Positions 53,901 to 59,900 of a stretch of DNA of 64,000 bases are shown here, piece by piece. Under the pieces are notes generated by a model. That model ran no database searches, was not told the DNA's origin, and saw only the letters and a program-made list of their open reading frames with translations. Made by a program: the position numbers and the translations under genes. Origin of the DNA: Gigantopelta aegis. Lineage: Eukaryota > Mollusca > Gastropoda > Neomphalida > Peltospiridae. The stretch covers positions 109,800,727 through 109,864,726 of the forward strand of contig NC_054702.1 in NCBI RefSeq assembly GCF_016097555.1, given 5' to 3'. Position 1 is the stretch's first letter. Every line of letters begins with the position of its first letter.

Positions 53901-56900
53901 TGTACACTATATATTAAACGATACACTTATGTTATTTCTTGCGTGTGTAAGGAGTATTTTAAAATATGCACACAGATACACACTCACACACAAAACACAC
54001 TCACGCACACAGACACAAACATACACAAATCAGATTGTAAAAACCTCATATTTTTGTTTTAGAATATAACATTGATATTGTTTTTGTTTCTAGTATATTT
54101 TACATATAGGTTCATTACTGGTATATCCACCACCACCTCGTGTATACCTCCACTAAACAAAGTGTGATCCTACAAGTGTAACTAAAATATTGCACGATAT
54201 CTCCCTTTTCCTATTTTACCTTATTATGTAACAATCATCATTTAGTTTCAGTACCCAAAGCAGGCTCCAGGTTAAACTTTATGACGCAACTCAATCCGAC
54301 GCAACATCACATCTCAACATCACAACATCCGTGTGTTTTATTTCGACCTTTAGTTTTGTGTAACATTTGTAAATAAATATTGATACTTTTTTCTTCTTCT
54401 TCTTTATTTGCCCATGCTTTAAAAAAGTCTGTTTTTCTGCCTAGTATGTCTTGAAATGAAAAAAAAGCGGCCCCAAACACCCAAACCAAAACCAAGCAAC
54501 AAAACAACAACTCTCCAGTTACCTCATTGGAGGACTCTGTTGGAGGCTTTGGAAACTAATGAAACGAAAGAAACCGAGAACGCACCATCAAATAGCTTTT
54601 ATTTCTTTTTGTATGTGTAACAGGTCCCCCCCCCCCCCCCCCCCCCCCAGGGAAGAAACCAGACAGTTTTATGCACTGCTAACGCAGCGCCAGTTACAAC
54701 TCTAATGTCCAGTTCTGGAATCGATCTGACAAATTGGTTAATTTGCGTCGGGTTGAATAATCGTCCAGTTTAATTTGAGTCTTCCTCAAACCACTATCTG
54801 CCAAATGTAACATCTAATGATACAAATCGATACCAGTAAGTGATCAAATGTAGCACTATAAAATTATGATTTGATTCCTTAAATAAAAATGTTGTACCAT
54901 ACAGGAAACGAAAAATGCTTATTTTAATGATACATCATTAAGTTAGTATTATAACCATTCAAATATTTAATTGGCAACATGAACGTGATCAAATGATACA
55001 CATTTAGAACATTTTCTACAATAACTGTTCCTTGTTGTATTGCCTTTTAAAATAAAATAAAATGTTTTGTATCATTAGAAGTTTAAACAACTCCCCCATG
55101 TCGACCCACGCATCTGCGACTCATTACGTTTGTACTAAACCTGTTTTAGACCCCGATATCGTTTAGCGCCTGCATCAGAATAAGATCCTACTAAAGCCGG
55201 GCCTTGTTTGATTGTCAGGTGGAAGTCCCCTAACCCTACTACTAATTCATTAACGTGTTCTTTCGCAGGACGTGTGTGCAGAGGTTCTTGAAACTAATTC
55301 ATTGCCAACCAGTGGCAACAAGCATTCGTCTAATTGGTAAAGTACTCCTAGTTATAGTGGGTAGAACCAGGTAGAGCATAAATACATATCTCATGTATAG
55401 AGATTAAATACTATAAAGGAATTTGTTTACATGTTCTTTAAATAAAATTTATCGACGCTTGTAGGTTAGACTAGACAATTAGGTTTGATAATTCGTAGAT
55501 TAGTGATTGCAAGAAATAAAGAGAAATGTTGTTTATTGTTTGTGTTTGTCTGCCTGTCTTCGTTTATTATTTCTTTATTTTACCATATCTGTATTTAAAC
55601 TCGTCCTTGGTTTAAAGATCAAAGATGCGGAATCCAGATAGCTAAGCTGTTCAAACATATACGTTTTAAGTGAAAAAACTTTGGGTTAATGTAGTCTTTT
55701 CTAAATTTTACTATCTACTTAATAATATTTTGGAAATTGTCACTTTAACTATCGTTACATTTAAAGCCATTGTTGTTTCAATTTCAAATATCTGTATTGT
55801 GGTCAGCATGCTGTGTAGCTCGCTGCTTATTTCTGAAGTAAAATGTATTAGCCTACATTTGATTTTGCTAGTCATTTAACTCATCGTAGCTGACTGATAA
55901 AATCGATATTGTCAGATTTATTTTTATATCATGTGTACATTTTGTACATATTTGTTTTGATCTTTAAAAATTAACATTCAGTTATATAGGTTATAAGTAA
56001 AGGCCACTTGCTACTATTTGTACAGTACTCTATATATTTACATATATTTAACTTTAGCCGACCTTTCCTACTAAACAATTAATTTGATAAATTTACCTTG
56101 ACAAAACGTTACAGGCAAATATACATCTCTACCGAGACCCTTGATCAACTTATTTTAATATTGTTTGTATATTAACAGGGAAAGTTTATCCGAATCCACT
56201 TCGGTTCCCAAGGAAAGATCGCCGGAGCCGATATTGAACATTGTAAGTTGATAATTGCGTTAGTTAGTTGGTGTTTTTTGTCCTCAAAAATAATTTTGGT
56301 ATCAAGGTCGTAGCTGGCAGGCTAGATTGGAATCCCAAATACTTTTTATTTAGTTGTTTCAAGTTAGCTACTGTTCTGAATATCCACCATGTAACGTTTC
56401 AGAAGAATAGACTTAAATGTTTAGGATGGACTCACATAATGTTGGATGGAATTGTGTGGGACAGATTATTTGACTTAAATTAAATTTAAATCTTCTGCTT
56501 GGTCAGCTACTTTTATCGTGTATTATTTTTTAAAGAAAACACACACAAAATACCAACAAAAAACAACCCAGTTCAATTTTTTTTTTCATAATCGTCTTTG
56601 AAAGTAGATAAATATATTTTGAAACTATTAAATTAGTATATTATTATTATAGATAATCTGACCTGTCCGTGAATTTTTCAGACCTGCTGGAGAAATCCCG
56701 CGTGACGTTCCAACAACCCGCCGAGAGGAACTACCATATCTTTTACCAGATCCTGTGTGGAGCCATCGCCCCCATGGCAGGTAGGTTACAGCAGGACGCG
56801 GAGTATATGTTAACACTTCTATTACCAGATCCTGTGTGAAGCCATCGCCCCCATGGCAGGTAGGTTACAGCAGGACGCGGAGTATATCTTAACACTTCTA

Positions 56901-59900
56901 TTACCAGATCCTGTGTGAAGCCATCGCCCCCATGGCAGGTAGGTTACAGCATGACGCGGAGTATATCTTAACACTTCTATTACCAGATCCTGTGTGGAGC
57001 CATCGCTCCCATGGCAGGTAGGTTACAGCAGGACGCGGGGTATATATTAACAGTTCTGTTACCAGATCCTGTGTGGAGTCATCGCCCCTATGGCAGGTAG
57101 GTTACAGCAGGACGCGGAGTATATGTTAACACTTCTATTACCAGATCCTGTGTGAAGCCATCGCCCCCATGGCAGGTAGGTTACAGCATGACGCGGAGTA
57201 TATCTTAACACTTCTATTACCAGATCCTGTGTGGAGCCATCGCCCCCATGGCAGGTAGGTTACAGCAGGACGCGGAGTATATGTTAACACTTCTATTACC
57301 AGATCCTGTGTGAAGCCATCGCCCCCATGGCAGGTAGGTTACAGCATGACGCGGAGTATATCTTAACACTTCTATTACCAGATCCTGTGTGGAGCCATCG
57401 CCCCCATGGCAGGTAGGTTACAGCAGGACGCGGAGTATATGTTAACACTTCTATTACCAGATCCTGTGTGAAGCCATCGCCCCCATGGCAGGTAGGTTAC
57501 AGCATGACGCGGAGTATATCTTAACACTTCTATTACCAGATCCTGTGTGGAGCCATCGCTCCCATGGCAGGTAGGTTACAGCAGGACGCGGAGTATATAT
57601 TAACAGTTCTGTTACCAGATCCTGTGTGGAGTCATCGCCCCTATGGCAGGTAGGTTACAGCAGGACGCGGAGTATATCTTAACACTCCTACCAGGAGTAG
57701 CCCATCCGGTGGCACTAGAGACTGCTGTTAGTCACTGTCAAGAGTAATGCTAGTTTTAGACTATTAACTGCCAGCAGAAGGTTGGCCAACTTTCTGCTGT
57801 CACGACTTCTACGACTGTCCAGTTGCTAGTCTGAGCGCTCTTACAATTCAGTTCTCGTAATATAACCCATTAGTTGTTAATCTGAGCGCATCCATCTAAG
57901 TCGGGAATTTGGGTAAATTACAATGTAACAGTCGAGTTTGGCTAACTTTCTGTTGGCAGTTGGTAGTCTAACCCTAACATTAAGCGCATATTCCATTTGT
58001 CAGTAACATAATCCGCATACGTATACGTAATCGGCATCAATTACTTTCTTTGTCAGTGGGTTGAGTATATTTCATGTATGAATCCTCCACGCGTATCCGA
58101 TCAGACTGTGCATTGCGGATTACGTATACATATGCAGATTACGGACAAATGGAATTTTCGCTTTACGCCGTTTATTCGTTCCAGACAATCTCCTGGCTAG
58201 TGCCGACCCCGGTCTGTATTCCTTCATCAACCAGGGAGCCCTTACCGTGGACGGAATCGATGACGTGGAGGAAATGAAGACCACTGATGTGAGTTGAACC
58301 CAACAGTCAGTTCAAAATTAACATTTACAATTACACACGGTTTCGGTCTCAACCCCCGGTCCCCCTGGTCCCCCTGGTCCCCCGGTTCCTATTTTATTGA
58401 CAGAACAAGGTCGCATTTTGTTAATACCTAGTTATCATCTCTAATGTTAAAGTGATTCATTACCATGGTTTGACATGACCTTACACTTATGTAGAGATGA
58501 CACGCACGCAGGCGCACGCACGCACGTTACTGCTGTTTTGTAATTTCAATACATACAAATAACTTTAATTTCTATTTTGATATTCTTAATTGTGTTATGT
58601 TTCTAATGTTGAACAGGAAGCTTTTGATATTCTTGGCTTCACTGCTGAAGAGAAGGGAAGCATGTACAAATGTACCGGCAGCATTCTTCACATGGGAGAG
58701 ATGAAGTTCAAACAGAGAGGAGAACAGGCCGACGCAGATGGAACAGCTGGTAAGACCGACAGTCGGTCAGTCCCGTGATTATCTTAACTCTTATATATAT
58801 ATATATATATATATATATATATATATATATATATATACTCTTCAAAAGAAGAAACGCAAAACCACATTGTCGTAACATTTGGAGAATTGATTTAATTATT
58901 GAATGGTGAGTCCGATAATTACCAAATGTTGCAGGATTGTTCACAATTCACTCTAGTCCATTGTGAGTAAGTGATAGGACACACCACCAAGGTCAAGGTC
59001 ATCTGGAGTCAATACCGGGTGTGGCCTCCGCGTGTGTTGACAACTGCCTGGCACCGCCTGCCCATTGAAGCAACCAGAGTACGGATGACGTCCCGGGGGA
59101 TGGTGGCCCACTCGGCCTGCAAGGCTGCTGCCAGCTCGGGCAGGGTCTGGGGCTGTGGTTGTCTCTGTCGAAGGCGTCGGTCCAACTCGTCCCATAGATT
59201 CTCAATTGGGTTCAAATCCGGTGATATCGATGGCCAAGGAAGGACATTAATGTTGTTGTTCTGTAGGAAAGCCGTTGTGAGACGTGCTGTGTGAGGCCTG
59301 GCGTTGGCCATAACTGGAACGATGTGTGGCCGGAGGATCTGGTCAATGTAGCCCTGTGCATTCAGGTTGCCCTGCACGTGGACCAGGTCAGTTCTGCCAG
59401 TGTGTGAGATGGCTGCCCACACCATGACACTACCCCCGCCGAATCTGTCCACTTCCTGCACGCAGTTTGCCGCATAACGTTCACCACGACGCCTATACAC
59501 GCGACATCTTCCATCATGACGTCGGAGCAGAAATCGGGACTCGTCACTGAACCACACCTGTCTCCATCGCAGTTGAGGCCATTGTCGATGAATCTGGCAC
59601 CACTGCAGTCGGAGTCGACGGTGTTGTGGTGTTAAGATGACACCTCGAACTGGACGTCTGGCACGAATTCCTACCTCACGTAGGCGGTTCTGTACGGTCT
59701 GGTCGGATATCCTGCGCAAACCTGGTATTGCTGCGGCTGTGGAGGTGGCAGTAGTCAATCGTTCCCGAAGGTGGCGTACCCGGATGTAGCGGTCCTGCCC
59801 GGCGGTAGTGACCCGTGGTCGACCGGATCTAGGGAGGTCACGTGTTGATCCATGTTGCTGGTAACGGTCCCACAGTCTGGAGATGGTGCTTGGGGACACA

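What the first reader, a model, noticed from the sequence alone, without database searches (positions are those of the whole stretch)
56743..57690. Twelve-unit tandem array carrying copies of the exon 8 end and its 5' splice site
The 79-bp unit includes 38 bp of myosin exon 8, the donor GCAG|GTAGGT, and intron up to a 'ttctattaccag' that also looks like an acceptor. Eleven extra donors thus sit directly behind the real one, and each unit could act as a 31-nt pseudo-exon. Reading past the first donor meets a stop within one unit, so donor choice matters. Coding bases in the later copies are drifting (gtgtga versus gtgtgg), as expected for unconstrained copies.
Basis: seen in the sequence. Interest (0 to 1): 0.75.

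Follow-up and report, generated by a model that had tools for sequence, protein, structure and literature searches.

The report
Minisatellite repeating a myosin exon's end
In a snail-like animal's muscle myosin gene, the last bases of one exon and the splice signal behind them stand twelve times in a row; this is most likely a passive repeat that the cell must splice around, of a kind already known from two human genes.

Summary
The array is real: twelve 79-bp units at 56744-57691, unit 1 being the true end of a muscle myosin heavy-chain exon. Thirteen exons join in one open frame, 584 aa; the nearest molluscan relatives listed are Haliotis and Gigantopelta myosins at 82 and 81%. The donor CAG|GTAGGT is identical in 12 of 12 units and is second-best of the gene's 13 donors. 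Each step also carries an acceptor-like TTACCAG within the range of the real acceptors, most simply copied from the exon's own codons (IFYQ). All 11 later donors read into one stop at 56837-56839; 99 of 2047 sets of 31-nt pseudo-exons keep the frame. Unit 1 equals units 7 and 9 base for base, so the coding end is homogenised with the array. Best reading: a donor-bearing minisatellite born by tandem duplication of an exon-intron junction, spliced at its first donor, later ones giving rare dead-end transcripts. Human ABCA7 and IFI6 are precedents; exon coding sequence and an acceptor in every unit are the additions. No RNA, individuals or orthologous DNA could be examined; paralogue searches did not complete.

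The parts
41799..63701 (+). Muscle myosin heavy-chain gene, 13 coding exons read from the ATG into the motor domain (the gene continues beyond the window)
   Evidence: joined frame 584 aa without stop; Pfam Myosin_head 1.7e-219 and Myosin_N 3.3e-17; best solved relative squid 3i5f, then scallop 1b7t
56682..56780 (+).
56744..57691 (+). Twelve 79-bp units; TRF reports 56739-57690; a further TACCAG after a 3-nt gap in register at 57689-57694
56781..56786 (+). Real 5' splice site of E8 (CAG|GTAGGT); eleven identical copies follow every 79 bp to 57649/57650
   Evidence: 12 of 12 identical; score 10.02, second of 13 gene donors, above 99.9% of 1079 intronic GTs outside the two large arrays
56740..56749 (+). 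CTTTTACCAG inside E8 (codons for IFYQ): acceptor-like, the probable source of the acceptor-like site of the units
   Evidence: score 8.04 against 5.82 for the real E8 acceptor; HIFYQ in 34 of 35 relatives aligned
56829..56859 (+). First 31-nt potential pseudo-exon (unit 2); ten more at 79-bp steps
56837..56839 (+). TGA met by the message if the first donor is read through, whichever later donor is used
   Evidence: frame 1; 11 of 11 later donors
58185..58288 (+). Next exon, E9 (104 nt); the intron 56781-58184 holds the array
50748..50775 (+). E5, a 28-nt coding microexon of the same gene model: as short as the pseudo-exons

Best explanation
A donor-bearing minisatellite. A tandem duplication once spanned the end of a constitutive myosin exon and the first part of the following intron (shown: each unit holds exon end, donor and intron start; inferred: the event). 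Unequal exchange or slippage raised it to twelve units and keeps homogenising them, the coding copy included (shown: unit 1 equals units 7 and 9; inferred: the process). Because the exon's own codons ATC TTT TAC CAG resemble a 3' splice site, the units also carry an acceptor-like site and so a complete potential 31-nt exon cassette (shown in sequence; use not shown). In the muscle cell E8 is most likely defined by its own acceptor and the first, strong donor. The copies are normally skipped: 31 nt is short and the 48-nt gaps between them are close to or below the usual minimum for an intron (inferred, general knowledge). Any use of a later donor, and most pseudo-exon combinations, give a premature stop and presumably nonsense-mediated decay (frames shown, decay inferred). 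Array length is probably polymorphic (inferred).
For: Array anatomy and unit identities; intact gene frame; identical strong donors and acceptor-like sites; a stop in 11 of 11 read-through forms and only 99 of 2047 pseudo-exon combinations open. Of 11 exons searched against the window (E2 and E5 were not), none has a convincing second copy apart from the array, the next best matches having E 0.016 or worse, so no mutually exclusive exon is seen. A donor free of variable columns is expected with P 0.32, hence no sign of selection on the copies. RNA fold of 56682-57000 is no better than shuffles, z +1.06, 83 of 100 shuffles at least as good. The window holds many other tandem arrays, and 2 of 5 minisatellites in this gene touch an exon boundary where random placement gives a mean of 1.65, P 0.55. 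Precedents of a junction minisatellite whose first donor is the canonical one and whose later donors are used at times: ABCA7 (passages), IFI6 (one passage).
Against: No RNA was available, so use of the first donor is inferred. The exon end is the stretch where this protein departs most from relatives beyond their own variability (ILCGAIAPMADN, rank 1 of 572 windows of 12 aa; the window wholly within the array part ranks 14), which could mean that the array has altered the protein. But a non-array stretch starting near residue 384 ranks 2, the excess continues into E9 outside the array, and no significance test was made.
Confidence: 0.72

Rival explanations
1. A length-dependent splicing rheostat: donor copies and pseudo-exons divert a steady share of transcripts into nonsense-mediated decay and so set the dose of this myosin.
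For: Every unit keeps the strong donor and the steps keep an acceptor-like site; nearly all alternative products carry stops; ABCA7 VNTR length affects splicing in people (passages).
Against: No conservation evidence could be gathered; donor invariance is within chance (P 0.32); no RNA.
Confidence: 0.09
2. Productive cassette splicing: three or six pseudo-exons are included together and insert 31 or 62 residues between E8 and E9 in the motor domain.
For: 99 of 2047 combinations stay open, 62 of 165 triplets and 37 of 462 sextets; the gene model contains a 28-nt microexon.
Against: Adjacent copies are only 48 nt apart; none of the 35 relatives aligned has any insertion or gap anywhere in E8-E9.
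Confidence: 0.03
3. Assembly error: the true copy number differs, at the extreme a single unit.
For: No reads or second assembly could be examined.
Against: Six different unit sequences among units 1-11 in a non-trivial order with block duplications, which an erroneous loop would hardly make; chromosome-size contig.
Confidence: 0.06
4. The gene is a decaying paralogue, so the array is of no consequence to any muscle protein.
For: Lottia has a tandem cluster of Mhc genes (passages), so relaxed copies are possible; mild excess divergence at the exon end.
Against: 13 exons join in one open frame with recognisable splice sites. Per exon, 65-94% of residues agree with the 35 relatives, within 0.06 of how well those agree among themselves in 13 of 13 exons, though slightly lower in 10 of 13.
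Confidence: 0.07

Closest known systems
ABCA7 intron 18 VNTR (human; PMC5954066, passages read)
   Same: Tandem array whose first two bases are the exon's donor GT; a donor one unit further on is used at times, adding one unit and shifting the frame; a cryptic acceptor in the exon; array length varies from about 12 to about 427 units.
   Different: 25-bp unit beginning at the GT, so no exon coding sequence in the unit; here 79 bp, with about 42 bp of exon and an acceptor-like site in each unit.
IFI6 (6-16, G1P3) minisatellite (Turri, Cuin and Porter 1995, not held; known here from its title in the reference lists of PMC2572611, PMC2915984 and PMC4526556 and one passage of PMC4526556)
   Same: Minisatellite at an exon-intron junction giving multiple donors; two downstream repeat units serve as donors.
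   Different: Downstream donors encode protein isoforms there (recalled: a 12-bp in-frame unit); here each extra unit shifts the frame and a stop follows.
Internal tandem repeats at exon-intron boundaries of human duplicated genes (PMC2812944, passages)
   Same: Minisatellites at boundaries that can create alternative splicing and novel introns.
   Different: A survey of recent human paralogues; none named there was compared with this one.
[quoted passage not shown]
   Same: Duplicated exon-intron structure supplies ready splice signals; multiple exonic copies containing AGGT are reported in fission yeast.
   Different: There a new intron is actually spliced; here none is shown.
Mutually exclusive exon clusters of muscle Mhc genes (PMC3912159, one section and passages)
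   Same: Tandem duplication within the same gene family.
   Different: Those are whole exons used one at a time; here only the last 31-42 nt of an exon is repeated.

Membership tests
Minisatellite / VNTR | Tandem units of roughly 10-100 bp | tested here: met
   period 79, 12.1 copies, 94% matches
Minisatellite / VNTR | Copy number varies between individuals | not testable with these tools
   one genome held; unit order suggests block duplication
Donor-bearing minisatellite (ABCA7, IFI6 type) | Array starts at the exon's donor or in the exon and each unit repeats the donor | tested here: met
   12 of 12 identical donors
Donor-bearing minisatellite (ABCA7, IFI6 type) | Later donors are used in RNA | not testable with these tools
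   no RNA data
Mutually exclusive exon cluster | Complete homologous exons that can replace each other | tested here: not met
   only the end of E8 is repeated; the other 10 exons searched show no second copy at E below 0.016 in the window (E2 and E5 not searched)
[quoted passage not shown]
   each step holds GTAGGT...TTACCAG, 48 nt
[quoted passage not shown]
   no RNA, no orthologous DNA

The most novel reading that the evidence does not exclude
Every unit is a self-contained proto-exon (acceptor-like site taken from codons of the conserved motor-domain motif HIFYQ, 31 nt, strong donor), so the array is a ready-made supply of microexons and 48-nt proto-introns whose length tunes the output of a muscle myosin gene, and through homogenisation also rewrites the coding end of the real exon.
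Probability: 0.1. Interest if true: 0.7.

Novelty: new variant of a known kind. Interest (0 to 1): 0.42.

Why it matters
Eleven copies of a strong donor within 870 bp behind the real one, in a muscle myosin gene, would be a natural experiment on how the spliceosome picks the first of many equal sites and on how tandem duplication hands out ready splice signals, the raw material for new introns and microexons. It also shows a minisatellite that includes protein-coding sequence, so array homogenisation can reach the protein. If splicing proves clean, it is a good test case of exon definition; if not, it is a dose control by repeat length.

Tried and rejected
Mutually exclusive exon cluster: rejected, no convincing whole-exon copy among 11 exons searched in the window (weak matches at E 0.016 to 1 were taken as chance). 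Special clustering of minisatellites at exon boundaries: 2 of 5 arrays touch one, random placement mean 1.65, P 0.55, so rejected; this test lets random arrays cover exons and used five arrays that I picked (period 20 or more, within the gene). RNA secondary structure: z +1.06 for 56682-57000, which covers E8 and under three units further. Selection for intact donors: invariance expected with P 0.32. Use of the acceptor-like site inside E8 itself: that form is not open. An array-driven change of the protein: only suggestive; the 35 relatives were picked by hand from the 219 proteins listed: 31 molluscs, one nemertean, three without organism name. A short direct repeat TACCAG at both edges as the seed of the duplication: possible, but it may equally be a decayed partial thirteenth unit. 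The splice-site matrix uses base frequencies recalled from general knowledge, not from a call; the E2 row of that table is a start codon, not an acceptor. A miR-137 VNTR paper (PMC6692358, one passage) was looked at and not used. Paper searches: 4 of 4 listed; 18 of 18; 20 of 46; 6 of 6; 15 of 95; 10 of 57; by title and start of abstract, none of those listed reports a donor-bearing tandem array in a myosin gene or in a mollusc.

Full report
What is there. The plus strand of 41799-63701 carries the first part of a muscle myosin heavy-chain gene. Thirteen exons join into one open frame of 584 aa with recognisable splice sites, matched by Pfam Myosin_N and Myosin_head, by squid and scallop muscle myosins of solved structure, and by full-length proteins of which the molluscan ones nearest by identity are Haliotis rufescens (82%) and Gigantopelta aegis (81%) among the 120 listed. 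The animal is therefore most likely a vetigastropod or neomphalid snail (group names recalled) whose own protein is not among those listed; the species is not known. The held genome is 1.149 Gb in 5216 contigs, with the window on contig C4.

The array. Behind the exon that ends at 56780 stand twelve 79-bp units, the first of them being the exon's own end. My labels for the unit types run D, C', C, A, B, C, D, C, D, C, A', B'. Units 1, 7 and 9 (D) are identical over all 79 bases, units 3, 6, 8 and 10 (C) are identical to one another, and the C-A-B block occurs twice, at units 3-5 and 10-12, with 0, 1 and 3 differences. This is the signature of unequal exchange or slippage with homogenisation, and the coding copy takes part in it. 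Variable columns among units 1-11 number 9 of 79: 5 in the exon-derived part, 4 in the intron-derived part. A DNA search of the own genome with 56700-57750 returned only this place (that search skips very common words and scored one candidate).

Splice signals. With a simple weight matrix (frequencies recalled), the donor CAGGTAGGT scores 10.02, second of the gene's 13 donors and above 99.9% of 1079 GT sites in its introns outside the two large arrays; it is the same in 12 of 12 units. The acceptor-like site before each extra copy scores 7.3 (9 of 11) or 5.72 (2 of 11); the 12 real acceptors range from 2.32 to 10.48, 5 of them below 7.3 and 3 below 5.72, and 7.3 is above 96% of 779 intronic AG sites. 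The exon itself contains CTTTTACCAG, scoring 8.04, more than the exon's real acceptor at 5.82. The units match that exon stretch at 10 of 11 positions (56739-56749), so the acceptor-like site is most simply a copy of codons ATC TTT TAC CAG, which spell the conserved IFYQ; HIFYQ stands in 34 of the 35 relatives that I aligned.

Consequences for the message. All 11 later donors, and retention of the whole intron, meet the same TGA at 56837-56839. Of the 2047 possible sets of 31-nt pseudo-exons, 99 keep the frame: 62 of the 165 triplets and 37 of the 462 sextets. Frames say nothing of use. Against easy use speak the 31-nt length and the 48-nt spacing of adjacent copies (general knowledge), and the absence of any insertion in E8-E9 of 35 relatives; in its favour, the same gene model contains a 28-nt coding exon, E5.

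Is it selected? I found no sign. Donor invariance is within chance (P 0.32), the part of the RNA that I folded does not fold better than shuffles, and tandem arrays are common in this window. Two of the five minisatellites in the gene touch an exon boundary, no more than random placement gives. One result cuts the other way: the stretch ILCGAIAPMADN, mostly array-encoded, is where this protein departs most from its relatives relative to their own variability, rank 1 of 572 windows of 12 aa. The window that lies wholly in the array part ranks 14, a non-array stretch ranks 2, and no test of significance was made. Gigantopelta is similar there (SGAISGMSDQLLMSADPG), so ordinary divergence may be enough.

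How it most likely works. A tandem duplication across the exon-intron junction multiplied exon end, donor and intron start. The first donor, paired with the exon's own acceptor, defines the 99-nt exon, and the copies are skipped with the intron. Errors give dead-end transcripts. The sequence facts are shown; donor use, decay and length variation are inferred.

What is known. The human ABCA7 VNTR begins with the GT of exon 18, and its 25-bp unit is repeated from about 12 to about 427 times. Retention of one unit occurs and shifts the frame (passages of PMC5954066). The IFI6 minisatellite supplies multiple donors, two downstream units being used (passage in PMC4526556; the 1995 paper itself is not held). 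Repeats at exon boundaries creating novel introns are surveyed in PMC2812944 (passages), and intron gain by tandem duplication in PMC4974935 (passages). Within myosin heavy-chain genes the tandem duplications that I found described are whole, mutually exclusive exons and whole genes (PMC3912159, one section and passages), which this is not. The present array adds exon coding sequence and an acceptor-like site to each unit, hence a new variant of a known kind.

What is missing. No RNA, no reads, no second individual and no orthologous DNA were available. The own-genome search for paralogues was asked repeatedly and never answered (listed in Tried and rejected).

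Noticed in passing
44293-46354: A 51-bp minisatellite (37.7 plus 2.5 copies in two TRF rows) ends 9 bp before exon E4 (46364) of the same gene, so the branch-point region of E4 probably lies in the array; CTACTAAA occurs 26 times in 44293-46363. The E4 acceptor scores low, 3.5, though E6 is lower.
   Followed up: partly
27560-32471: A 44-bp minisatellite of about 111 copies, the longest of many arrays in the window.
   Followed up: no
59009-60049: Open frame of 346 aa on the minus strand in the intron between E10 and E11: Tc1/mariner-type transposase (DDE_3, HTH_Tnp_Tc3_2).
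   Followed up: partly
57982-58163: Inverted repeats with arms of 25 and 28 nt, 88-89% complementary, ending 21 bp before exon E9; looks like a small non-autonomous transposon.
   Followed up: no
41993-41994: Exon E2 ends with a GC donor (GAG|GCAAGC) in the frame that joins on to E3 as in relatives.
   Followed up: no
56762-56778: The exon end has GCCAT...ATGGC, a possible 5-bp hairpin two bases before the donor, repeated in the units; in units 5 and 12 a C to T change would keep it as a G-U pair (read, position, not tested).
   Followed up: no
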